Below are positions 2 to 11,581 of a stretch of 64,000 bases of DNA, one piece after another (the first letter of the stretch is position 1; each line of letters begins with the position of its first letter). Under the pieces are notes generated by a model. It ran no database searches and was not told where the DNA came from. It saw only the letters and a program-made list of their open reading frames with translations. The position numbers and the translations under genes were made by a program. The stretch spans positions 1-64,000 of the forward strand of contig NZ_JAGSOH010000005.1 in NCBI RefSeq assembly GCF_018139625.1, written 5' to 3'. The stretch is from Actinospica acidithermotolerans (GTDB lineage: Bacteria; Actinomycetota; Actinomycetes; Streptomycetales; Catenulisporaceae).

Positions 2-376
2 TACTACCGCGACTGGACCGGCGTGGCCAACGACGTCGTGGCCGTACTCCGCAGCGAGGCCGGCGTGGACCCGCACGACAAGCCCCTGCAGGACCTCGTC
101 GGCGAGCTCTCCACCCGCAGCGACGTCTTCCGCACCCGCTGGGCCGCCCACAACGTCCGCTTCCACCGCACCGGCGCCAAGAACTTCCACCACCCCGTCG
201 TCGGCGACCTCGACCTCGTCTACGACGCCATGGAGCTCCCCGCCGACCCCGGCCTCACCCTCGTCGCCTACACCGCCGAGCCCGCCACCCCCTCCCACGA
301 CGCCCTCGCCCTCCTCGCCAGCTGGGCCGCGACGCAGGAATCTGAGGCCGCCGCCGAGAAAGGCTTGACATTTTAG
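2..376 (+). CDS. XRE-family transcriptional regulator, MmyB-like C-terminal domain (5' end outside window)
   Basis: The open frame runs in from the window edge, so only the last ~124 residues are visible and the N-terminal helix-turn-helix is outside. The visible part matches the MmyB-like ligand-binding domain found C-terminal to XRE DNA-binding domains in actinobacteria: DVVAVLRSEAG, then ELSTRSDVFRTRWAAHNVR, then HHPVVGDLDLVYDAMELPAD, then a LALLASWAA tail. A GTG at 23 is an internal codon, not the start. Such regulators usually control a divergent oxidoreductase gene; none is visible here. It reads toward the fxs locus but is separated from it by over 400 bp, so a regulatory link is only a guess. 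Confidence 0.85.
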   Translation, partial: YYRDWTGVANDVVAVLRSEAGVDPHDKPLQDLVGELSTRSDVFRTRWAAHNVRFHRTGAKNFHHPVVGDLDLVYDAMELPADPGLTLVAYTAEPATPSHDALALLASWAATQESEAAAEKGLTF

Positions 377-810
377 CGGCGTCGAGCCGATCCTGTTTTA
401 GGTTTCCACCGGAAAGGGCTTTTCCAGGGAAACGCATAGGCGTGAGAGTACGGCAACATTCGTTCTACAAATAGCGCCACAGGACCCTTAGATCACGGTT
501 CAGCCACGATTATGGCTACGCCACCGTCGGCAAGGCGGCCGGGCGCATCGGCGCCGCAAGGGCCTTACTCTGCCCGGTTGAGGGACCGCGGGAGAAGTTG
601 ATCAATGGCCTCGTTCACCCCAACGGTCGAACCGTCTCGTGCCGTTACACGAACAGGCTAAAGGCGCCGCGCAGCAGGGGCTTTCTCGGTGTAGTGTGGG
701 CGCAACTGCCGTGAAGATCATTGACGCCAATCTTCGATCTTCTTGACGCGATGCGGGGGCTCTTTCCCCGACGTCAACAGCCGGCGAGAGACGAGAGGAG
801 TAGGACCATC
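377..810. other. Non-coding region upstream of the FxsA precursor
   Basis: This is a 434-bp gap with no convincing coding frame. A TTGACA hexamer lies at 365-370, overlapping the end of the regulator gene, but no good -10 stands at the right distance. A TAGTGT at 692-697 could be a -10 for fxsA transcription, without a recognisable -35. The region is less GC-rich than its surroundings in 377-520. It probably holds the fxs promoter. Confidence 0.4.
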
Positions 811-960
811 ATGAACACCCCTGAGAAGTCCCTCATGACTTCGAACATCACCGACGTTCGCCAGGCGCCGCTTGGTCGGCTGTCGGCTCCCGAGACTCTG
901 GACCGGCTGCGCCCGGGCGGCGGCAAGGTCGTCGTCGCCGCGTTCAACTCCTCCCTGTAA
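811..960 (+). CDS. fxsA: FxSxx-COOH RiPP precursor peptide FxsA
   Basis: A 49-residue peptide ending AAFNSSL, that is Phe45-Asn46-Ser47-Ser48-Leu49-COOH, exactly the FxSxx-COOH signature. The ATG at 811 is preceded by GAGGAG at 795-800 with 10-nt spacing. An in-frame TTG at 721 would add 30 arginine-rich residues and has no better ribosome site, so 811 is preferred. The leader includes a PLGRLSAPETLDRL stretch that probably binds the enzyme. In this family a radical SAM enzyme crosslinks the Phe ring to a nearby residue, giving a three-residue cyclophane (F-N-S here). That is known for FxsB relatives; for this peptide it is inference. The gene heads the fxs locus, 262 bp before fxsB. Confidence 0.9.
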   Translation: MNTPEKSLMTSNITDVRQAPLGRLSAPETLDRLRPGGGKVVVAAFNSSL

Positions 961-1116
961 GACGCCGAGCCTCCGGCGCGCAGGCCCCGAGCGCGCAGTT
1001 GCACGGATCCCGACAAAGGCCGCGAGTCGGTATTTGTCGAATGAAGCACCCAGGGATCCCCGCACTGCCCGTAGGATTGCGGCGAGCGAGGAGTCCCGCG
1101 CAGGCGAGGGTTCCTC

Positions 1117-1157
1117 ACGATCGGCAGCCCGGAACGGATCCGTCCGGGCTGTCGGTC
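1117..1157 (+). terminator. Hairpin between fxsA and fxsB (attenuator or partial terminator)
   Basis: The arms at 1117-1132 and 1142-1157 pair over 16 bp with two weak positions, around a 9-base loop. The core is AGCCCGGA with TCCGGGCT. There is no T-run after it. It lies in the 262-bp gap between precursor and enzyme genes, where RiPP clusters often have partial terminators that keep precursor mRNA in excess or stable. Confidence 0.45.
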
Positions 1158-1222
1158 GAAGATGAATTGGCCGCGCCCGAGGGCCGAACCACCCGCGGGT
1201 CTCCTTCCGAGGGTTGGGTGCC

Positions 1223-3616
1223 GTGAGCTCGCAGTTCACGCCTTTCCGGCAGTTCGTCGTCAAAGTGCACTCCCGGTGCGATCTGGCTTGCGATCACTGC
1301 TATATGTACGAGGCCGTAGATCAGGGCTGGCGTCGGCAACCCATGGTGATGAGCGCGGACACGGCAGCCGCGCTCGGCCGGCGGATCGCCGAGCACGCGG
1401 CCGAGGGCCGACTCGACCTGGTGCGCGTCGTACTTCACGGCGGCGAGCCGCTGCTCGCCGGCGTCGGCCGGCTGCGGGAGATCATCGAGGCGGTGCGCGA
1501 GCCGCTGCTCGCCCTCCCCGAGCCGCCGCGGCTGGATCTGCGCATCCACACCAACGGCGTGCGGCTCGACGAGCGCTTCCTCGAGCTCTTCGCCGAGTTC
1601 CATCTCAAGGTCGGCATCTCGCTGGACGGCGACAGGTCCGCGAACGACCGTCATCGCCGCTACGCGAACGGGAATTCGAGCCACGCGCAGGTGCTCGCCG
1701 CGCTGGAACTCCTGCGCAGCCCGCGCTACCGCCATCTCTACGCCGGCATCCTGTGCACGGTCGACATCGCTAACGACCCGGTGGCCGTCTACCGGGCCGT
1801 GGCGGCCGAGCAGCCGCCCAGGATCGACCTGCTGCTTCCGCACGCCACGTGGGACTGCCCGCCTCCCCGGCCGGACGGGATCTCCCGGCCCTCGACGTCG
1901 GCCGATCCCGCGTACGCCGCGTGGCTGCTGGCCGTCTACGAGGCCTGGAACGCGGACGGGCGCCCTTTCGGCATCCGGCTGTTCGACTCGATCCATTCCA
2001 CGCTGCGCGGCGGCCCGCCGCTGACCGAGGCGCTGGGCGTGGCGCCGAGCGACGTCCTGGTCATCGAGACCGACGGTGCGCTCGAACAGGCGGACTCGCT
2101 CAAGGTCGCCTTCGACGGGGCCGTCGACACCGGACTCCGCGTGCAGGATCATCCGCTTTCGGCCGCGACCGTCAACGCTCAGGTCATGGCGCGCCAGAAC
2201 GGACCTGACGGCCTGTCCGGGCAATGCCGCTCGTGTCCGGTGCTCACCAGTTGCGGCGGCGGCCTCTTCGCGCACCGCTACCGCGGCTCGGACGCCGATC
2301 CGGACGGTTCCGCGGCGGCGTTCCGCAACCCGAGCGTCTACTGCGCCGATCTCCTGGAACTGATCCAGTCCATCCAGAAAGCGGAGAGCGCGGACATGGC
2401 TTTCTCAGCCGGCACCACCGTCACCAGGGCGCATTTCGACGAACTCGCCTCGGGACTCGGCGGCACGGCCGCGATCGGGGAACTCGCCGATACGCAGGCG
2501 AGCATCAACCGGACGCTGCTGGCCGCGGCCGGGCAGGCGCTGGCCGAGCAGACGACCGAGGGCTCGTGGGCGTGGCAGCTCCTGCAGATTCTCGACGAGA
2601 AGCACCCCGCGGCGGTGGCGAAGGCCGTCTCCCATCCCTTCTTTCGCGCCGCCGCGTTCCGTGCGATCGACGACCCGGTGTCGGCGCATCCCGGCACGCT
2701 CATCGGCTACGCGCTGGCCGCCGCGTCGCACGCCGGTCTTGCCGCGGAGCTGCCCGTGCCGCTGGACACGGCAAGCGTGTACCTTCCGGGAATCGGACTT
2801 ATCGCGACAGCGGACGGCAAGGCGGCGCTGGAGCACGGCGGCCAACCGCGCGAGTTCATCGCACGGTCGCGGTATGTGGGCGGCGAAGACGGCCCCCGCG
2901 TGCTCTTGGAGGACCTCGACGAGCAGCGCGACGCGTTCCAGCTGCCGCCGACGAATCGCCTGACGGACGACGAGTTCGCCCACTGGGCCGCCGCGTACGG
3001 CGCGGCATGGCAGCTCATCAAGAGGCAGTACGGCGAGTACGTCCCCGGGCTCGAGGCCGGACTGCGCGTTATCGCCCCTCTGATGCAGTCGCCCGACGGG
3101 CATGCGGCGAGCGGCACCGCGAGGCAGGCGTTCGGTGCGCTAGGCCTGGCGCTGCCCGCGGATCCCGACGTCTTGGCCCTCCTGCTGATCCATGAGTTCC
3201 AGCACGTCAAACTCGGCGCTCTGATGGATATGTTCGATCTCTACGACAGCTCGGACACGCGCCTCTATTACGCGCCCTGGCGCGAGGACCCGCGCCCGCT
3301 GGAAGGGCTGCTGCAGGGCGTCTACGCGCATGTCGCGGTCGTCGACTTCTGGCGGCGTGCCTTCCAGCGCGGCGACGCCAAGGCTGCCGTCCACTTCGCC
3401 AGGTGGCGGGCACAGACCTGGCAGGCGATCGAGCAGCAGTTGGAGACCTCGGGCTCCCTGACCGAGCACGGCGCGCACCTCGTTTCCGGACTCAAGGCGG
3501 CCATGGCGCCCTGGATGGAGATCCCCCTCGCGGCAGAGGTTCTCGACGAGGCGTCCCGGAAGGGCGACGAGCACCGCAGCGCATTCCGCTCGAGTGAATC
3601 GAGCGCCGTTAGATGA
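1223..3616 (+). CDS. fxsB: Radical SAM/SPASM cyclophane synthase FxsB with fused C-terminal HEXXH domain
   Basis: 797 residues. I chose GTG 1223 (GAGGG at 1209-1213 as ribosome site) over TTG 1214. The N-terminal radical SAM domain has the CxxxCxxC cluster motif at Cys19, Cys23 and Cys26 (RCDLACDHCYMYE), then HGGEPLL and a TIM-barrel core. A SPASM-type region has Cys335, Cys338, Cys344 and Cys374 for auxiliary iron-sulfur binding. From about residue 400 a second domain carries His657-Glu658-x-x-His661 (HEFQH) and a conserved QGVYAHVAVVDFW stretch with His703 as a possible third metal ligand. This fused domain is the HEXXH domain of FxsB proteins. Related stand-alone proteins are described as 2-oxoglutarate-dependent peptide beta-hydroxylases, so the protein may both crosslink and hydroxylate FxsA. 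The stop overlaps the next start (ATGA). Confidence 0.93.
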   Translation: MSSQFTPFRQFVVKVHSRCDLACDHCYMYEAVDQGWRRQPMVMSADTAAALGRRIAEHAAEGRLDLVRVVLHGGEPLLAGVGRLREIIEAVREPLLALPEPPRLDLRIHTNGVRLDERFLELFAEFHLKVGISLDGDRSANDRHRRYANGNSSHAQVLAALELLRSPRYRHLYAGILCTVDIANDPVAVYRAVAAEQPPRIDLLLPHATWDCPPPRPDGISRPSTSADPAYAAWLLAVYEAWNADGRPFGIRLFDSIHSTLRGGPPLTEALGVAPSDVLVIETDGALEQADSLKVAFDGAVDTGLRVQDHPLSAATVNAQVMARQNGPDGLSGQCRSCPVLTSCGGGLFAHRYRGSDADPDGSAAAFRNPSVYCADLLELIQSIQKAESADMAFSAGTTVTRAHFDELASGLGGTAAIGELADTQASINRTLLAAAGQALAEQTTEGSWAWQLLQILDEKHPAAVAKAVSHPFFRAAAFRAIDDPVSAHPGTLIGYALAAASHAGLAAELPVPLDTASVYLPGIGLIATADGKAALEHGGQPREFIARSRYVGGEDGPRVLLEDLDEQRDAFQLPPTNRLTDDEFAHWAAAYGAAWQLIKRQYGEYVPGLEAGLRVIAPLMQSPDGHAASGTARQAFGALGLALPADPDVLALLLIHEFQHVKLGALMDMFDLYDSSDTRLYYAPWREDPRPLEGLLQGVYAHVAVVDFWRRAFQRGDAKAAVHFARWRAQTWQAIEQQLETSGSLTEHGAHLVSGLKAAMAPWMEIPLAAEVLDEASRKGDEHRSAFRSSESSAVR

Positions 3617-4389
3617 TCGGCCGACGTCGCCTGAGAGCAGCCCTCGCCGATGCGGGGATGCGCCCCGGCATGACCGTGCTCGTGCACTGCTCGATGCGCG
3701 AGATCGGCTGGATCAGGGGCGGGGCGAAGACGCTGCGCGGCGCGATCCTGGACGTCCTCGGGGCGGACGGGACCCTGGCCGTGCCGACGCAGACGTCGTC
3801 CAAGTCGGTCACCTCGAAGGTCTTCCAGCGGGCCGTCGCGGGGCTCGAGCCGGAGGATCGAGAGCTGTACGCGAAGCTTCTGCCTGGCTACGACGCGCGC
3901 ACGACTCCGTCCGAGGGCATGGGCGCGCTCGCCGAGGCGGTGCGGACCCATCCGCAAGCCCACCGGAGCGCCCACCCGAGCACGTCGTTCGCGGCCGTCG
4001 GCAGGCATGCGGCGACGGTGTGCGCCGGGCACCCGATCGACTGCCTGCTCGGCGAGGAATCCCCGCTCGGCGCGCTACGCGAACTCGATGCCAGCGTTCT
4101 GCTTCTCGGTGTCGGTTACGACAAATGCACGGCTTTCCATCTGGGCGAGGATGGCGCCTTCCACGATGAGCGGCCGTATCGCTGCAAGATCGGCGATGAC
4201 TGGCACGATTTCCAAGGTTTCCCGCACGAGGACGGGGATTTCGCGGAACTCGGCCGGAGGTTCGAGGCGGCGCGCGCGACGAGGATACGCGCGGGCCAGG
4301 TCGGCGGCGCGGCGACCCGGCTGTTCCCGCTGGCCCTGGCCGCGGACTTCGCCGCGAAGGAACTGCCCGAGTTGCGATTCGCCCGCTGA
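3613..4389 (+). CDS. AAC(3)-family N-acetyltransferase within the fxs locus
   Basis: 258 residues, typical length for aminoglycoside 3-N-acetyltransferase family proteins. Seen: VLVHCSMREIGWIRGGAKTL near the N-terminus, the SEGMGALAEAVR segment, His121-Pro122 in the family motif HPSTSFAAVG, and SPLGALRELDASVLLLGVGYD. The ATG at 3613 overlaps the TGA of fxsB by four bases, so the two are translationally coupled. True resistance members and many environmental homologues share this fold. Here the tight coupling suggests the substrate is the Fxs peptide or a related amine, perhaps N-terminal acetylation of the cleaved product or self-protection. That is inference; aminoglycoside modification is the alternative. 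Confidence 0.85.
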   Translation: MIGRRRLRAALADAGMRPGMTVLVHCSMREIGWIRGGAKTLRGAILDVLGADGTLAVPTQTSSKSVTSKVFQRAVAGLEPEDRELYAKLLPGYDARTTPSEGMGALAEAVRTHPQAHRSAHPSTSFAAVGRHAATVCAGHPIDCLLGEESPLGALRELDASVLLLGVGYDKCTAFHLGEDGAFHDERPYRCKIGDDWHDFQGFPHEDGDFAELGRRFEAARATRIRAGQVGGAATRLFPLALAADFAAKELPELRFAR

Positions 4390-4505
4390 TTCGCTCCACT
4401 CGCGCGCTCTCATGCGCCCCCTGTTTCGTAGTCCTCTTGCCACCTATAGTGGAAGGACTGCCTTGAATGCGATCTTGGGCACGGGGCGCATCGAGAGGAT
4501 GATCA

Positions 4506-5834
4506 ATGGGGCCGAAGCCTCCGGAATCGGCGCCGTCGTTACCGACGGAGATCGACGCCTTCGGGCCGGCCTTCTTCCTCAGCTATTCCCGGGTGGCCCC
4601 GCTGCGCGGCGACCGGACCGACCCGGACTACTGGGTCAAGCGCTTCTACCACGAGTTGGCCGGCGAGATACGCTCGCTCGACGCCAACCTGCGTCACGGC
4701 TTCATCGCCGACCACGTGCCGCCGGGATCGAGCCCTGAGACGGTCACCGCCCGCAACCTCGCGAGCTGCCGAATATTCGTTCCGCTGTACGGGGACGACT
4801 ACTTCGACGACGAGCAGTGCGGCCGGGAATGGACCGTGTTCGAGCAGAGACGGCAACTGCGCCGCGCCCGCACCGGGGACGACGGCGAGTCCGTCGTGCC
4901 CGTGCTCTGGACCAGGCCGGGCCGCGAGGACTGGCCTGAGTGCGCACGGCGGGTGCGGCCGAATCCGCTGCTCTCCAACGATCTCTACCTCCGCCTCGGG
5001 CTTTTCGAGCTGATCCGGCTGCATGAACGCGCGTACCACGAGGTGGTGCGGCTGCTGGCCAAGGAGATCGTGCGCCGAGCGCACACGGAGGCGCCGCCGG
5101 TGGCCGCAGAAGACGCGCTTTCCTGGGCGACGCCGGCGTTTCCCGCTCCCGGCCGATCCACCCGGCAGCTGTTCATCACCGTCGTCGCCGGCGTTCGACG
5201 CAGCATGCCGACCGAGCGCAACCCCGACTTCTACGGGGAGCGCCCCGAGGACTGGCGCCCGTACCAGCCCGAGTCGCAGGAGCCGATCGCCATGCGGGCC
5301 GCGCGGATCGCCCGCACGCTCGGCTACCAACCCGAGATCAGGGTCCTGACGGCGACGTCCCCGGAGGTCAAGCCCGAGGTCAGGGTGAACAGCCAGATCC
5401 GGCAGGACTCCCCCTTCCTGCAGCCGTCCGGCGCAAGCATCCTGCTCGCCGACCCGTGGCTGTTCCGCGGGTTCAAGGAGCGCCGCAACCTGGAGACCGT
5501 CGACCTGCGCAAGAAGGAGTGGGTCCGGCTGATGGTGCCGTGGTCGTCCACCGACCACGAGACGCGGGAGCAGCGCACCGCCCTGGAGGCGCACGTGCAC
5601 AACGCCGTCCCGTGGATGATGCAGGGCTGGCGGCGCACCTGCCAGCAGCACGTGGTGGACCTCGCCACGCCGGAGCAGTTCGACGAGGCGCTGCCCGCGG
5701 TGATCGACCGGGCCCGCAACCACTACCTCAACAACAGCAGGCCGCTGCGCGACTCGACGTTCGGCGGCTATTCGGGCAGACCTCGGCTGGCCCCGCCGCC
5801 CGAGGACGAGCCGCCGCGGCACGGGTCGGGGTGA
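4506..5834 (+). CDS. fxsC: TIR-like protein FxsC
   Basis: 442 residues with no signal peptide. The N-terminal half has a TIR-like fold pattern: AFFLSYSR at residues 22-29, an FYHELAGEIR helix, then SCRIFVPLYGDDYFDDEQCGREW around 90-113. A second conserved part begins near residue 218 (RQLFITVVAG). The pairing with fxsB and fxsT and the overall pattern match the family named TIR-like protein FxsC. The ATG at 4506 has a GAGAGGAT-type ribosome site. The 116-bp gap upstream holds TATAGT at 4445-4450, a candidate -10, so fxsC-fxsT may have its own promoter. Whether it has NADase activity cannot be told from the sequence. Confidence 0.9.
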   Translation: MGPKPPESAPSLPTEIDAFGPAFFLSYSRVAPLRGDRTDPDYWVKRFYHELAGEIRSLDANLRHGFIADHVPPGSSPETVTARNLASCRIFVPLYGDDYFDDEQCGREWTVFEQRRQLRRARTGDDGESVVPVLWTRPGREDWPECARRVRPNPLLSNDLYLRLGLFELIRLHERAYHEVVRLLAKEIVRRAHTEAPPVAAEDALSWATPAFPAPGRSTRQLFITVVAGVRRSMPTERNPDFYGERPEDWRPYQPESQEPIAMRAARIARTLGYQPEIRVLTATSPEVKPEVRVNSQIRQDSPFLQPSGASILLADPWLFRGFKERRNLETVDLRKKEWVRLMVPWSSTDHETREQRTALEAHVHNAVPWMMQGWRRTCQQHVVDLATPEQFDEALPAVIDRARNHYLNNSRPLRDSTFGGYSGRPRLAPPPEDEPPRHGSG

Positions 5835-5890
5835 GCGGGACCCATGCGCACGCGGCCGGCACGAACCGACGACAACGAGGGACAGGGATC

Positions 5891-8800
5891 ATGAGCGCAG
5901 AGCGGCCCGGGCAGGTCGTCACGTTCTATTCGTACAAGGGCGGCACCGGGCGGACCATGGCGATGGCGAACCTGGCCTGGATCCTGGCGGCGAACGGCAA
6001 GCGGGTGCTGATCGTCGACTGGGACCTGGAATCGCCGGGGCTGCACCGCTATTTCGCGCCCTCGCTGCTAGACCCGCAGGCCCTCGCCGCGACGCAGGGC
6101 GTGGTCAACATGGTCCGCGAGTTCGAGGACCTGGCCGCGGAGACCCCCGACGAGGACCGTTCGCCGAACTGGTACCGCTCGCTGGCCCGGGTGAGCGACT
6201 ACGCGATCGCGATCCGCTGGCCGTTCCCCGGCGACGGGGCGCTGCACTACATGTCTTCGGGCCTGCAGAACCGCAGCTACTCCAGCACCGTCGCGACGCT
6301 GGACTGGGAACGCTTCTACGAGCGCCTCGGCGGCGGCGAGCTGTTCAACGCCTTCCGCGAGGACATGAAGCAGAACTACGACTACGCGTTCATCGACAGC
6401 CGCACGGGGCTGAGCGACGTGGCCGACATCTGCACGCTGCACCTGCCCGACGTCGTCGTGGACTGCTTCACCCTGAACAACCAGGGTCTCGAAGGCGCGC
6501 TGCTGGTGGCGAACGCGGTCTCCAAGTTCAACAGCCACCCGATCCGGCTGCTGGCCGTACCGATGCGCGTCGACGAGGCCGAGAAGAACAAGGCCGAGGC
6601 CGGACGCGCCGCGGCCAGGGCCCGGTTCGGCGATCTGAAGCTCGACGAGCTCGCCAGCTCGCGCTATTGGGGCCAGGTCGAGATCCCGTACGTGCCCTTC
6701 TACAACTACGAAGAGACCCTTGCGACGTTCGCGGACGATCCGAACGACCAGCACACGCTGCTGCGCGCCTACATCCGGCTCGCCGAGGTGCTCACCAAGG
6801 GCGAGGTGACCGGTCTCCCGGAGATGGAGGAGACCGACCGCAAGGCGATCCTGTCCGAGGTCTCACGGCTGCAGCCCACGCGCCAGGAGCAGCTGATCGT
6901 CGCGTACGCGGCGGAGGACCGGCTGTGGGCCGAGTGGCTGGAAGCGCTGTACACGCAGGCGAACTTCGACGCGCGGATCTACCCGCTGTTCGGCGACCAG
7001 TCGACGCGCCCGCAGATCGAATCGAGCACGAAGATCATCGCCCTGATGTCCGCGGAGACCACGCGTGACGCCGAGGCGATGACCCGGCTGCGCGCCTGGT
7101 CGTCGACCGGCCAGCTGGCCGTCGCCTCGCTGACCGAGCTGCGCTCCGACTCCCGGCTCGCGGCGCCGACCGCCGAGCTTCAGGGCGTGACCGATCCGGT
7201 CACGGCCACCGGGATACTGCTCCGGCTCGCCGACGTACCGGACGCCGAGATCGCGACCGCCAGGCCGCCGGAGGGCCAGCGCTTCCCGACCGGCCAGCCG
7301 GTGATCTGGAACGTGAGCGCGCGCAACGCCGTGTTCACCGGCCGTGACGAGGCGATGGAGAAGCTGCGCCGACAGGTGACCGGCGGTTCGACGACGGTGA
7401 TTCTGCCGGTCGCGCTGCACGGTCTCGGCGGTGTCGGCAAGACGCAGCTCGCCCGCGAGTACGCGCACCGTTTCTCCGCGGACTACGACCTGGTCTGGTG
7501 GATCAACGCCGAGTCGACCGAGTTCATCGACGAGGCGCTGGCCGAACTCGCCCGCCGGCTGCGGCTGCCGGGTACAGGCGAGTCCAGCACCGAGGACTCG
7601 GCGGCCGTCCGCGAAGCGCTGCGCCGCGGCGAAGCCGGGCACTGGCTGCTGATCTACGACAACGCGACAGACCCCGGGCTGCTGCGTCCGTTCCTGCCGA
7701 GCGGTACGTCAGGGCACGTGCTCATCACCTCGCGAAACCAGGCGTGGGCACAGCAGGCCGTACCCCTCGAGGTCGACGTCTTCACCCGGCAGGAGAGCGT
7801 CGAGCACCTGACCAGGACGGTTCCCGGGCTCGAGGAGCCGGAGGCGGAGCAGATCGCCGATCTGGTCGGTCACCTGCCGCTGGCGGTCGAGAGCGCGGGC
7901 GCCTGGCTCGCGTCCACGGGCCACCCGGTATCCCAGTACATCGAGCGACTGCGCAACCAGATCACTGAAGTGCTCTCGACGCCGCCCGCCGACTACCCGG
8001 TCTCCGTGGCGGCGACGTGGAACATCGCGATGGAGGATCTGGAGCGACGGCGCCCGGCCGCGGCCTGGCTGCTGGAACTGTGCGCGTTCATGAACCCGGA
8101 CGGCATTTCGACCACGCGGCTGATCTACTCCAACGCCATGCTCGACACGTTGCGCGAGTACGACGCGTCGCTCGTCGACATCGGCATGATCGGCACGGTC
8201 GTCGCCGAGCCGGTCCGTCTCTCGCTGCTGCAACTGGATCAGGTGGCGCGCGAGCTGCGCATCCACCGACTCGTCCAGTCCGTCATCAAGGCTCGAATGA
8301 CGCCGGAGCGCCACGAGCAAGCGGTCCACGCCGTGCACCGCGTGCTGGCAGCCGCGCGACCGCAGTCCGGCGACACGGACGACCCGCAGAACTGGCCTTC
8401 GTACGCGCTGCTGTGGCCGCACATGACTCCGTCCAACGCGATCGACTGTGACGAGAGCCCGGTAAGGCAGCTGCTCATCGACCGCGTGCGCTACCAGTGG
8501 AAGCGCGGCGAGTACGTCAACGGCCTCGACAGCGGCAATAGGCTGAACGATCGCTGGGCCGAGCGCATCACGACGCTCGGCGGACGCGACACCCCCGCCG
8601 GCGCGGCGCTCTACCAGCAGCAACTCGTGCTGCGGAACCTGCTCGCCAGCATCATGCGTTCGCAGGGCAAGTACAAGGAAGCGTACGAACTCAATCAGAG
8701 CGTGCTGGCCGAGCAGGAGCGGCTCTTCGGCAAGGACCATCCGCACACGCTCGCCACGCTCCTGGGCATCGGCGGCGACCTGCGCGGCCTCGGCCGCTTC

Positions 8801-9814
8801 TCCGAGGCGCTGGCGAGCGACAGCGAGAGCCACGCGCTCAACCGCCGGGTCTACACCGAGGGCGATCCCCGGCTGCTGAGCTCCGCCAACAACCTGGCGG
8901 TGAGCTACCGGCTGCTCGGCGACTGCTACAAGGCCGCGGAACTGGACCAGAGCACCTATGTGCAGCGGCGCTCCGTGCTCGGCGCGACCCATCCGTACAC
9001 GCTGTATTCCAGCCAGAACCTGGCCCGTGACCTGCGGGACGCCGGACAGTACAAGCAGTCCACCGACCTGCTGCGCGGGGCGCTGGCCAGCTACCGCGAC
9101 GCGGTCGGCGAGAACAACCCGGAGACGCTGCGCGCCGCGAAGAGCCTGGCCGTGTCGCTACGCAAGGGCGGCGAGCTCAGCGAATCGCTGGCGCTGGCCC
9201 GGGACACTTTCGAGCGGTACCGCACGGAGTTCGTGGCCTCCAACCCGGACCGCCAGTCCTGCGCGCTGGTCTACGCGGCCGCCCTGTCGGCGCTGAACGA
9301 CCATGAGCAGGCGCTGCAACTCGGCACCGAGGTACTCGCGGCGTACGAGCAGCAGCTCGGCGAGCAGCACCCGTACACGCTCTGCTGCGTCAACAACATC
9401 TCGACGTACCTGCGGAAGCTGGAGCGGCGCGACGAGGCCTTGCACGCTGCCCAGCGTGCGCACTCCGGATTCAGCACGCTGCTCGGCGGTGAGCACCCGT
9501 ACACGCTGACCGCTGCGGCGAACGTCGCGAACAGCCTGGCCGACGAGGGCGATCACGCGAGGGCGCAGGAGCTGGAGCTCAACGCGTCACGGAAGCTCGC
9601 GGACGTGCTGCGGCCGAACCACCCGGACGTGCTGGCGATCGAATCGAACCGTTCGATCAGCCTGAATTCGCTGGGTTCGACGGCGGATGCGCGGCAACTG
9701 CGCAGCCGCATCATCGCGGAGATGGAGGTGGCCCTCGGCCCCATGCACCACAACACGCGCTCCGCGCGGGACGCCGAGCGGCTGGACTGGGACCTGGAGC
9801 CCCAGCCCATCTGA
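5891..9814 (+). CDS. fxsT: FxSxx-COOH system tetratricopeptide repeat protein FxsT (P-loop / TIR-like / NB-ARC / TPR)
   Basis: 1307 residues; ATG 5891 follows a GAGGGA ribosome site. Residues 8-52 are a ParA/MinD-type P-loop, YSYKGGTGRTMAMANLAW, with signature Lys16 but Arg21 where the Walker Lys normally is; IVDWDLESPGLHRYF follows. A TIR-like segment starts near 334 (QLIVAYAAEDRLWAEWLEAL). An NB-ARC (STAND) ATPase follows, with FTGRDEAMEKL, the Walker A HGLGGVGKTQ (Lys517) and HLPLAVESAGAWL. From about 915 to 1290 there are tetratricopeptide repeats with recurring E-HPYTL units. The architecture is that of a STAND signalling or immune ATPase whose TPRs bind a partner, possibly the modified peptide. 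It sits 56 bp after fxsC. Confidence 0.92.
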   Translation: MSAERPGQVVTFYSYKGGTGRTMAMANLAWILAANGKRVLIVDWDLESPGLHRYFAPSLLDPQALAATQGVVNMVREFEDLAAETPDEDRSPNWYRSLARVSDYAIAIRWPFPGDGALHYMSSGLQNRSYSSTVATLDWERFYERLGGGELFNAFREDMKQNYDYAFIDSRTGLSDVADICTLHLPDVVVDCFTLNNQGLEGALLVANAVSKFNSHPIRLLAVPMRVDEAEKNKAEAGRAAARARFGDLKLDELASSRYWGQVEIPYVPFYNYEETLATFADDPNDQHTLLRAYIRLAEVLTKGEVTGLPEMEETDRKAILSEVSRLQPTRQEQLIVAYAAEDRLWAEWLEALYTQANFDARIYPLFGDQSTRPQIESSTKIIALMSAETTRDAEAMTRLRAWSSTGQLAVASLTELRSDSRLAAPTAELQGVTDPVTATGILLRLADVPDAEIATARPPEGQRFPTGQPVIWNVSARNAVFTGRDEAMEKLRRQVTGGSTTVILPVALHGLGGVGKTQLAREYAHRFSADYDLVWWINAESTEFIDEALAELARRLRLPGTGESSTEDSAAVREALRRGEAGHWLLIYDNATDPGLLRPFLPSGTSGHVLITSRNQAWAQQAVPLEVDVFTRQESVEHLTRTVPGLEEPEAEQIADLVGHLPLAVESAGAWLASTGHPVSQYIERLRNQITEVLSTPPADYPVSVAATWNIAMEDLERRRPAAAWLLELCAFMNPDGISTTRLIYSNAMLDTLREYDASLVDIGMIGTVVAEPVRLSLLQLDQVARELRIHRLVQSVIKARMTPERHEQAVHAVHRVLAAARPQSGDTDDPQNWPSYALLWPHMTPSNAIDCDESPVRQLLIDRVRYQWKRGEYVNGLDSGNRLNDRWAERITTLGGRDTPAGAALYQQQLVLRNLLASIMRSQGKYKEAYELNQSVLAEQERLFGKDHPHTLATLLGIGGDLRGLGRFSEALASDSESHALNRRVYTEGDPRLLSSANNLAVSYRLLGDCYKAAELDQSTYVQRRSVLGATHPYTLYSSQNLARDLRDAGQYKQSTDLLRGALASYRDAVGENNPETLRAAKSLAVSLRKGGELSESLALARDTFERYRTEFVASNPDRQSCALVYAAALSALNDHEQALQLGTEVLAAYEQQLGEQHPYTLCCVNNISTYLRKLERRDEALHAAQRAHSGFSTLLGGEHPYTLTAAANVANSLADEGDHARAQELELNASRKLADVLRPNHPDVLAIESNRSISLNSLGSTADARQLRSRIIAEMEVALGPMHHNTRSARDAERLDWDLEPQPI

Positions 9815-9863: not shown

Positions 9864-10775
9864 TCAGGCCGCGTCCGCGATCGGGTCGCGCCTGCCGAAG
9901 GCGATCCAGGGCAGCAGCGAGGGCAGCACGTCGATCGCGCTGAAGTGCGCGGCGTCCGCGGCGATCATCTCGATGGAGCCGGGGATCGTGCGGGCCAGCC
10001 AGTGCGTGTGCTGGACCGGCGAGAAGACGTCCTGCGCCCCGTGCCACAGCAGCGTGGGCACCAGGATGTCGGCCGGATCGAAGCCCCATTCCTGGGTGAA
10101 CGAGCGTGCGTCGTCGACCCAGCCGGCGCCGGATCTGGCGAGCGCCTCGGCGAAGTTGCGGCGGATGCCGATGCGGATCGTGTTGTCGGCGATCACCTGC
10201 CAGTCGGGCAGCGGCAGCTCCGGGCCGAGGTTGCGCAGCAGCGCCTTCGGGTCGTTCCTGATCTGCTCGGCGGAGGCCTCGATCTTCTGGGCCAGCGCGC
10301 CGACCCCGGACTCCGCGACCGAGTACTCGCGGCGGTTGGACTCGGTCATGCCCTCGTACCAGTCGAGCCCCTTGGCGTGCCGCGGCGCGAGGCCGACGAG
10401 GACCGCGCAACGGCTGACCCGGTCCGGCATCAGCGCGGCGCAGGCGAGTGCGTGCGGGCCGCCGCCGGATCGTCCGACGACCGAGAAGTTGTTGATCCCC
10501 AGGTCGTCCGCGATCGTCCGCACGTCGGCGGCGGCGTGCGCCACACTGCGCAGCGGCAGCCGGTCGGACTCGCCGTAGCCGGGCCGGTCGTACGCGATCA
10601 GACGTACTCCGAGTTGGTGCAGCAGGGCGCTGCGCGGGAACGGGCCGATCCTGCTGCCGGGCGTCCCGTGCATGAAGAACACCGGTGCACCGGAACGGTC
10701 GCCGAGAACCCGCACCGTCAGCCTGCGGCCGTCCGATGCCCAAACGGTGCGATCTGACTTATCGAACTCATCCAT
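9864..10775 (-). CDS. Alpha/beta hydrolase
   Basis: 303 residues. The start at 10775 is chosen because GGAGAGG lies 9 nt upstream; an in-frame ATG at 10793 lacks a good site. Seen: oxyanion segment HGTPGS (36-41), AYDRPGYGESD, nucleophile elbow VVGRSGGGPH with Ser103, acid Asp249 (LWHGAQDVFSP) and His277 (ADAAHFSAID). The triad is therefore complete. The substrate is unknown; soluble cytoplasmic, no signal peptide. It converges on fxsT with a 49-bp gap and is probably not part of that locus. Confidence 0.88.
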   Translation of the reverse strand: MDEFDKSDRTVWASDGRRLTVRVLGDRSGAPVFFMHGTPGSRIGPFPRSALLHQLGVRLIAYDRPGYGESDRLPLRSVAHAAADVRTIADDLGINNFSVVGRSGGGPHALACAALMPDRVSRCAVLVGLAPRHAKGLDWYEGMTESNRREYSVAESGVGALAQKIEASAEQIRNDPKALLRNLGPELPLPDWQVIADNTIRIGIRRNFAEALARSGAGWVDDARSFTQEWGFDPADILVPTLLWHGAQDVFSPVQHTHWLARTIPGSIEMIAADAAHFSAIDVLPSLLPWIAFGRRDPIADAA

Positions 10776-10903
10776 GCTTGACGGCCTCTCCATCGTGACC
10801 TACCCACCCCCACCGCCCTGCGGGTTTCTTCGAGTAATGATGCGTACCCCCGCGTGACTTGATCACTCCTGCACATGCACAGCGCGCGAGGTACCGTGGC
10901 CGC

Positions 10904-11581
10904 ATGGGCAATAGCGGGACGGGGCCGGGGACGATCACTCCGGACGGGTGCGCCGTGGACTTCTACCGGCGGCTTCCGGCGGCGGGCGAGCCGGAGATCG
11001 TGCACGCCGCGGTGCCCGCCGGGTCGAGCGTGCTGGAGCTGGGGTGCGGGACCGGCCGGATCGCCACGCCGCTGGCGCGGCTCGGGCATCGCGTCGTGGG
11101 AGTGGACGAGTCGGCCGAGATGCTGGCGTGCTGCAGGCAGATCGAGACCGTGCAGTCCTCGATTCAGGACCTTGATCTCGGCGAGCGCTTCGACGTGGTC
11201 TTACTGCCTTCGCACCTCATCAACGCCGGCGACGAGCCGCCGTCGGTCTTCCTGGATGCGTGCCGCCGGCATCTCGCCGCCGGCGGAGTCGTGGTCGTGC
11301 AGCGGTTTCCGCCCGGGTGGATCGGGACGGTCACCGACTTCGAGCACGAAGACGGCGCCGGCGGCGTGCACACCACGTTCACCGTTCTCGGGCGACCTGC
11401 GCCGGATCAGGTGCATGCGCGTGTCCGCTACGAGGTCGGGGACGATGCGTGGGAGCAGGAGTTCACCGCGTGCGAGGTCGACGACGAGGCCTTGCCGGGA
11501 ATGCTGGAAGCCGCCGGCCTGCGCCTGGATCGGATCCTGACGCAGGACGGCGGCTGGTTCGCCGCGACGGCTCAGCGGTGA
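10904..11581 (+). CDS. Class I SAM-dependent methyltransferase
   Basis: 225 residues from ATG 10904, preceded by GCGAGG. A longer TTG start at 10859 is possible. Motif I is VLELGCGTGR at 43-52, followed by HRVVGVDESAEML (acidic motif II), then FDVVLLPSHLINA and GGVVVVQRFPPGW. These are standard for small-molecule methyltransferases of the UbiE/COQ5-like group. It is divergent from the hydrolase and has no operon partner, so the substrate cannot be deduced. Confidence 0.85.
   Translation: MGNSGTGPGTITPDGCAVDFYRRLPAAGEPEIVHAAVPAGSSVLELGCGTGRIATPLARLGHRVVGVDESAEMLACCRQIETVQSSIQDLDLGERFDVVLLPSHLINAGDEPPSVFLDACRRHLAAGGVVVVQRFPPGWIGTVTDFEHEDGAGGVHTTFTVLGRPAPDQVHARVRYEVGDDAWEQEFTACEVDDEALPGMLEAAGLRLDRILTQDGGWFAATAQR

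What the first reader, a model, noticed from the sequence alone, without database searches (positions are those of the whole stretch)
811..9814. Complete FxSxx-COOH RiPP locus linked to TIR-like and STAND/TPR proteins
Seen: a 49-residue precursor ending F-N-S-S-L; a radical SAM/SPASM-HEXXH fusion; an AAC(3)-type enzyme coupled by ATGA; a TIR-like protein; and a 1307-residue P-loop/TIR/NB-ARC/TPR protein, all on one strand. Known: FxsB relatives make a three-residue cyclophane on Phe. Inference: FxsC and FxsT look like parts of a bacterial innate-immune or signalling module, so the peptide may be an intracellular signal or trigger sensed by the FxsT TPRs rather than an antibiotic. No dedicated exporter or protease is in the locus, which favours an internal role.
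Basis: partly seen in the sequence, partly recalled or inferred. Interest (0 to 1): 0.78.

Follow-up and report, generated by a model that had tools for sequence, protein, structure and literature searches.

The report
Cyclophane peptide locus with TIR/STAND proteins
This actinobacterial gene cluster makes a small ring-modified peptide next to proteins that look like a bacterial immune sensor and its TIR effector; the cluster type was already described, but a conserved hydrolase gene beside it had been missed and makes its proposed internal-signal role easier to test.

Summary
In detail: window 811-9814 holds fxsA, fxsB (radical SAM/SPASM fused to an intact HExxH domain), aac(3), fxsC (TIR) and fxsT (ParA-like/TIR/NB-ARC/TPR). 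It is a known kind: NCBIfam names the proteins, FxsB-type chemistry (Phe to Ser C-beta) is published, and Kaur et al. 2020 already proposed a peptide signal or toxin coupled to this AP-ATPase. New here: (1) a convergent alpha/beta-hydrolase (9864-10793) belongs to this subtype (98 of 98 loci, sets overlapping; 0 of 50 other FxsT or FxsC loci), which weakens the 'no protease' argument; (2) HExxH is intact in the window's family but lost in 76 of 76 Streptomyces-type copies, so it cannot be the required releasing peptidase; (3) FxsC keeps the TIR catalytic Glu while FxsT's TIR lacks it; (4) the acceptor Ser can be Ala. Most likely an internal peptide trigger read by FxsT with FxsC as effector. 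No defence island is visible; nothing was tested biochemically.

The parts
794..800 (+). probable ribosome-binding site of fxsA (AGAGGAG)
   Evidence: read directly in sequence
811..960 (+). fxsA, 49-aa precursor; leader motif DVRQAPLGRL, C-terminus AAFNSSL
   Evidence: same-genus orthologues
943..957 (+). predicted core F-N-S-S-L-COOH; predicted cross-link from Phe(i) to residue i+2
   Evidence: read directly; tail survey; chemistry from PMC11002830
1118..1158 (+). strong hairpin in the fxsA-fxsB gap, possible attenuator or RNA processing site
   Evidence: same-genus L264 has a different strong hairpin in the same gap
1223..3616 (+). fxsB: radical SAM/SPASM cyclophane maturase fused to HExxH domain (1214 TTG is the alternative start)
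1244..2377 (+). radical SAM/SPASM part of FxsB (CDLACDHCY)
   Evidence: TIGR04269
3002..3493 (+). alpha-ketoglutarate HExxH-type hydroxylase domain; HEFQH at about 3191-3205
   Evidence: TIGR04267
3613..4389 (+). AAC(3)-family N-acetyltransferase, ATGA-overlapped with fxsB; optional in the family
   Evidence: PF02522; presence survey
4506..5834 (+). fxsC: N-terminal TIR domain with Glu108 (CGREW) and FxsC C-terminal domain
5891..9814 (+). fxsT: STAND protein, 1307 aa
5912..6517 (+). ParA/MinD-like domain of FxsT, deviant loop KGGTGRT
   Evidence: NF047398; Foldseek to Soj/ParA
6863..7225 (+). degenerate TIR-like domain of FxsT
   Evidence: Pfam TIR_2 over cut-off in orthologues, not in the window copy; no Glu at the aligned position
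7406..7969 (+). NB-ARC domain of FxsT, Walker A GLGGVGKT and Walker B intact
8588..9760 (+). kinesin-light-chain-type TPR array of FxsT
9864..10793 (-). conserved convergent alpha/beta-hydrolase (Ser109/Asp255/His283), newly linked to the locus

Best explanation
An intracellular peptide-triggered STAND/TIR switch. FxsA is made in the cytoplasm. FxsB links the Phe ring to the side chain two residues on, at the very C-terminus, and its HExxH half may add a hydroxyl (chemistry inferred from characterised relatives). The modified FxsA, or the short tail cut from it by the neighbouring alpha/beta-hydrolase, is bound by the TPR array of FxsT through its ring and its free aliphatic C-terminus (inferred). 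Binding drives NB-ARC oligomerisation of FxsT (inferred). FxsT's own TIR lacks the catalytic Glu and would act as an adaptor that recruits and activates the TIR of FxsC, which has it and would act on NAD (inferred). The hydrolase either releases or destroys the peptide and so sets the trigger level (inferred). Shown here: domain content, conservation of the residues named, and co-inheritance of the genes. Everything beyond that is inferred.
For: 61 of 71 FxsB matches have an FxsT relative within 12 kb; 24 of 30 FxsC matches have both FxsB and FxsT. All 76 fxsB genes in named fxsC loci have an fxsA beside them. The tail is fixed relative to the C-terminus, with an aliphatic last residue in 72 of 73 distinct precursors (F and S there were imposed by the search, the last residue was not). 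FxsC TIR Glu invariant in 75 of 75 plus the window; TIR fold by Foldseek. FxsT Walker A Lys and Walker B Asp intact in 41 of 41, and no Glu before the Trp in its TIR. The TPRs match kinesin light chain, a peptide-binding TPR. The FxsC domain lies at the C-terminus of long proteins beside VMAP/MoxR genes. The hydrolase is linked only to the fused-FxsB type. The FxsB halves match the solved ChlB and HExxH structures.
Against: No experiment. FxsT relatives occur without FxsB in 68 of 138 cases, and FxsC with FxsT but no FxsB exists (L122, L245, L246, L269), so peptide sensing is not FxsT's only role. Conservation of the TPRs relative to NB-ARC is only slightly higher in linked FxsT (ratio 0.81 against 0.69), weak support for the TPRs as peptide receptor. 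The window's FxsT TIR is too degenerate for Pfam, and an acidic residue one position from the lost Glu in many copies leaves some doubt that this TIR is dead. No defence island; the upstream side is cut by the contig end.
Confidence: 0.45

Rival explanations
1. The cyclophane peptide is a guard or brake: bound peptide keeps FxsT/FxsC off, and loss of the peptide (failed maturation, or cleavage) sets the TIR effector free, as in toxin-antitoxin-like abortive infection.
For: Same co-inheritance data; radical SAM enzymes depend on iron, low oxygen and SAM supply, so peptide maturation could report cell state (general knowledge); a hydrolase beside it could remove the peptide.
Against: FxsC plus FxsT occurs without any FxsB, which would be toxic if the peptide were an obligatory brake, unless those copies are controlled differently.
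Confidence: 0.2
2. The peptide is an effector: a toxin or antibiotic made or released when FxsT senses something else, with FxsT/FxsC as its control (Kaur et al. give 'peptide toxin or signal').
For: RiPP chemistry is usual for antibiotics; the FxsT NB-ARC region weakly resembles the AfsR regulator (8.8e-17); PMC7159879 section 24.
Against: The tail is nearly invariant across genera, where antibiotics usually diversify. No exporter was recognised among genes conserved between loci, although only the hydrolase was typed. FxsT has no recognised DNA-binding domain.
Confidence: 0.17
3. A secreted signal or secondary metabolite of development, with FxsC/FxsT as neighbours kept together by shared ancestry rather than by a common mechanism.
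For: Patchy spread typical of metabolite clusters (FxsC in 8 of 23 same-order genomes); AAC(3) and hydrolase look like tailoring or resistance enzymes.
Against: The gene set recurs in several families with gene order changed, the hydrolase is relocated but kept in one clade, and fxsC lies directly before fxsT throughout, which chance neighbours would not show.
Confidence: 0.13

Closest known systems
FxSxx-COOH system of NCBIfam (TIGR04268, TIGR04269, NF040588/TIGR04276, NF040586)
   Same: FxsB, FxsC and FxsT all score over the curated cut-offs; same gene order as in relatives
   Different: FxsA scores below its cut-off; AAC(3) and the convergent hydrolase have no Fxs-specific model; family relatives carry Ala where the name demands Ser
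Standalone FxSxx peptide-processing system of Kaur et al. 2020 (PMC7159879)
   Same: Peptide, radical SAM/SPASM, HExxH domain, AP-ATPase-TPR with an inactive MinD/ParA-like domain
   Different: They read the HExxH protein as the releasing metallopeptidase; relatives are now known as alpha-ketoglutarate hydroxylases (PMC12636437), and the motif is lost in Streptomyces. Their section 24 mentions neither this alpha/beta-hydrolase nor AAC(3)
vWA-MoxR-VMAP ternary systems
   Same: Share the FxsC domain
   Different: No MoxR, vWA or VMAP gene seen beside the window locus, but its upstream side is cut off
Triceptides (MscB, ChlB/ChlH)
   Same: FxsB matches the ChlB radical SAM structure 9gm3 and HExxH structures 22nu and 8s5f
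   Different: Product not shown here; the precursor belongs to the FxSxx type
Plant TIR-NLR resistance proteins and bacterial TIR immune systems
   Same: TIR fold and catalytic Glu in FxsC, NB-ARC with sensor repeats in FxsT
   Different: TIR effector and STAND sensor are on separate proteins, and a modified peptide is encoded with them

Membership tests
FxSxx-COOH system | FxsB over cut-off (TIGR04269) | tested here: met
   518 bits, cut-off 370
FxSxx-COOH system | FxsC N- and C-terminal domains over cut-off | tested here: met
   158 and 137 bits, cut-offs 130 and 55
FxSxx-COOH system | FxsT over cut-off (NF040586) | tested here: met
   954 bits, cut-off 300
FxSxx-COOH system | precursor over the TIGR04268 cut-off | tested here: not met
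   21.2 bits, cut-off 28. The precursor is therefore placed by position, tail and same-genus orthologues, not by this model
FxSxx-COOH system | precursor ends F-x-S-x-x | tested here: met
   F-N-S-S-L, read directly
Triceptide | three-residue cyclophane on Phe | not testable with these tools
   needs mass spectrometry or NMR
alpha-ketoglutarate HExxH beta-hydroxylase | TIGR04267 over cut-off and HExxH intact | tested here: met
   167 bits, cut-off 40; HEFQH
alpha-ketoglutarate HExxH beta-hydroxylase | hydroxylation of the peptide | not testable with these tools
   no product data
TIR NADase (FxsC) | TIR fold and catalytic Glu | tested here: met
   Foldseek top matches are TIR domains (E about 1e-3); Glu108 in 75 of 75 relatives
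TIR NADase (FxsC) | NAD cleavage | not testable with these tools
   biochemistry needed
vWA-MoxR-VMAP ternary system | MoxR, vWA and VMAP genes adjacent | tested here: inconclusive
   none among the genes scanned downstream to 14.7 kb; contig starts at window base 1
Known anti-phage systems in PADLOC 2.0 | match of FxsC or FxsT to a defence model | tested here: not met
   only viperin-like matches to the radical SAM fold and a ParA-region match to PDC-M28B

The most novel reading that the evidence does not exclude
A bacterial innate-immune switch in which the sensor reads a ribosomally made, cyclophane-stapled C-terminus that stays inside the cell; a dedicated alpha/beta-hydrolase sets the level of that ligand, a dead TIR on the STAND sensor recruits a live TIR effector, and the HExxH hydroxylase is an optional tailoring step lost in Streptomyces.
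Probability: 0.25. Interest if true: 0.85.

Novelty: new member of a known kind. Interest (0 to 1): 0.5.

Why it matters
I found no published function for FxSxx loci in the open library searched, although they are widespread in Streptomyces and relatives (378 FxsC-type hits in GTDB species genomes). If the peptide is an internal ligand of a STAND/TIR switch, it would be a chemically stapled immune or stress signal. The conserved hydrolase, the split between live and dead TIR, and the loss of HExxH in Streptomyces each give a direct experiment.

Tried and rejected
Defence island: no support in the window; downstream genes are a methyltransferase, a CBM2 protein and a response regulator, then what reads as housekeeping genes. 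Phage origin: no FxsC in viral contigs or phage records; the plasmid hits examined are FxsC as the C-terminal domain of long proteins, one of them beside VMAP-C and MoxR genes. HExxH as the peptide-releasing peptidase: rejected as a general rule, since the motif is lost in 76 of 76 Streptomyces-type copies. TPR as proven receptor: the domain-conservation test was weak. AAC(3) as a core part: rejected, present in 33 of 80 named loci. An FxsC alignment of 19 divergent sequences could not seed a collection scan; a closer set did. Literature searches for a tested function found none. Promoter and terminator scan was uninformative.

Full report
What is there. The five genes are confirmed at the coordinates given. 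fxsA (811-960) encodes 49 residues ending F-N-S-S-L. It scores under the cut-off of the FxSxx model (21.2 against 28 bits) but is the best match in its genome, has a good ribosome site, and is conserved in two same-genus genomes with the tail F-N-A-S-L. fxsB is a fusion of a radical SAM/SPASM maturase and an HExxH domain with HEFQH intact. It is followed, with an ATGA overlap, by an AAC(3)-family gene, then fxsC and fxsT. A strong hairpin lies in the 262-base gap between fxsA and fxsB (1118-1158); such hairpins can favour the precursor over the enzyme, but that is inference.

Immediately behind fxsT, on the other strand, is an alpha/beta-hydrolase (9864-10793). In 80 named GTDB loci (one query, all Streptomyces-type) it is present in 75 of 77 with FxsT: 60 convergent and close behind fxsT, 13 moved to the fxsA side, and two with an irregular gap. 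The two without it are a contig end (L132) and L122, which lacks FxsB. In class-level loci all 13 with a fused FxsB have it. As a check on fresh data, 10 of 10 complete loci from the window's own family have it convergent behind fxsT. It is absent from 20 of 20 FxsB-FxsT loci without FxsC, 20 of 20 FxsT loci without FxsB, six divergent FxsC subtypes, and four FxsC-FxsT loci without FxsB. The sets overlap (L131 and the G035 locus look like the same contig) and are related by descent, so these are counts, not a significance test; the Fisher values are not used. Of the 14 matches outside the window with E of 1.2e-79 or better in 247 genomes, 12 lie in fxsB-C-T loci, one beside an FxsT-like gene (G123, L241) and one elsewhere (G196). 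Ser109, Asp255 and His283 are conserved. Because it follows the peptide enzyme rather than FxsC-FxsT, I infer that it acts on the peptide, as processing or turnover enzyme.

Does fxsC/fxsT travel with fxsA-fxsB? In 247 genomes of the class, 61 of 71 FxsB matches have an FxsT relative within 12 kb; 24 of 30 FxsC matches have both; FxsT relatives are without FxsB in 68 of 138. Of the six FxsC matches without FxsB, two have a short FxsT-like neighbour, three are long FxsC-containing proteins and one stands alone. In named loci every one of 76 fxsB genes has an fxsA: 73 end F-x-S-x-aliphatic and three have one more Gly. The F and S were search criteria, so their fixity there is partly by construction; the aliphatic last residue was not (72 of 73 distinct precursors). 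In the window's family the tails are FNSSL, FNASL, FDASL, FDASI, FDAII, FESAL, FQSSI, FSSSI and FQSSV. The residue two after Phe can therefore be Ala, as in the His-Ala cyclophane of HaaB (PMC11002830).

Chemistry. MscB links Phe C4 to Ser C-beta (PMC11002830; that its InterPro family IPR026335 corresponds to TIGR04269 is my own knowledge). A fused radical SAM/HExxH protein, ChlBH, makes the cyclophane and then beta-hydroxylates Asp or His (PMC12636437 citing Morishita 2024). The window's FxsB matches the ChlB structure (9gm3), an HExxH-half structure (22nu) and ChlH (8s5f). HExxH is intact in all 11 FxsB proteins of the window's family and lost in all 76 Streptomyces-type ones. That contradicts the 2020 reading of this domain as the needed releasing peptidase, and fits an optional tailoring role.

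FxsC and FxsT. The FxsC model (mean pLDDT 75.8) finds almost only TIR domains among the best Foldseek matches, E about 1e-3. Profile matches to plant TIR resistance proteins run through the catalytic Glu, which is invariant in 75 relatives and present in the window. FxsT has intact NB-ARC Walker motifs and a ParA-like domain with KGGTGRT. Its TIR-like region is over the Pfam cut-off in relatives but not in the window, and Glu is not among the residues seen directly before the Trp in the FxsC-linked copies. The TPRs match kinesin light chain. The FxsC domain also sits at the C-terminus of long proteins beside MoxR and VMAP genes, including on plasmids, which supports its reading as a conflict-system effector.

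Known or new. The locus is a member of the known FxSxx kind. Kaur et al. 2020 already joined the peptide to an AP-ATPase with TPRs and a MinD/ParA-like domain and proposed a toxin or signal. New in this work, as far as the tools show: the linked hydrolase, the loss pattern of HExxH, the Ala tails, and the live/dead TIR pair.

Limits. Nothing biochemical was shown. The contig begins at window base 1, so upstream partners cannot be excluded. The TPR-receptor idea rests on domain type, a fixed free C-terminus and a weak conservation test.

Noticed in passing
   Followed up: yes
window 2-376 (+): C-terminal fragment of an MmyB-like helix-turn-helix regulator (PF17765) cut by the contig start; possible regulator of the locus.
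   Followed up: no
window 1118-1158: Strong inverted repeat between fxsA and fxsB; a same-genus relative has a different hairpin in the same gap.
   Followed up: partly
L266:8262-8666, L267:8196-8852, L268:8449-9105, L270:8346-8954, L271:10184-10792, L272:8342-8950: Some family relatives carry an extra short TIR gene between fxsB and fxsC.
   Followed up: no
L273:5605-10179, L274:6196-10209, L174:8042-11257: FxsC domain at the end of long proteins, in L274 and L174 beside VMAP genes, on plasmids and chromosomes; named 'TIR-like protein FxsC' in the two plasmid records.
   Followed up: partly
L251 (G000:C422:60000-79900): Second HExxH hydroxylase (426 aa frame) about 5 kb from a radical SAM protein in the same genome: probably another RiPP cluster.
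   Followed up: no
L112 (G000:C111:104000-118000): Second FxsT-family protein (about 940 aa) in the same genome without FxsB nearby.
   Followed up: no
window 10859-11581 (+): Methyltransferase with a sub-threshold match (68 of 175 bits) to a daptide RiPP methyltransferase; role unknown.
   Followed up: no
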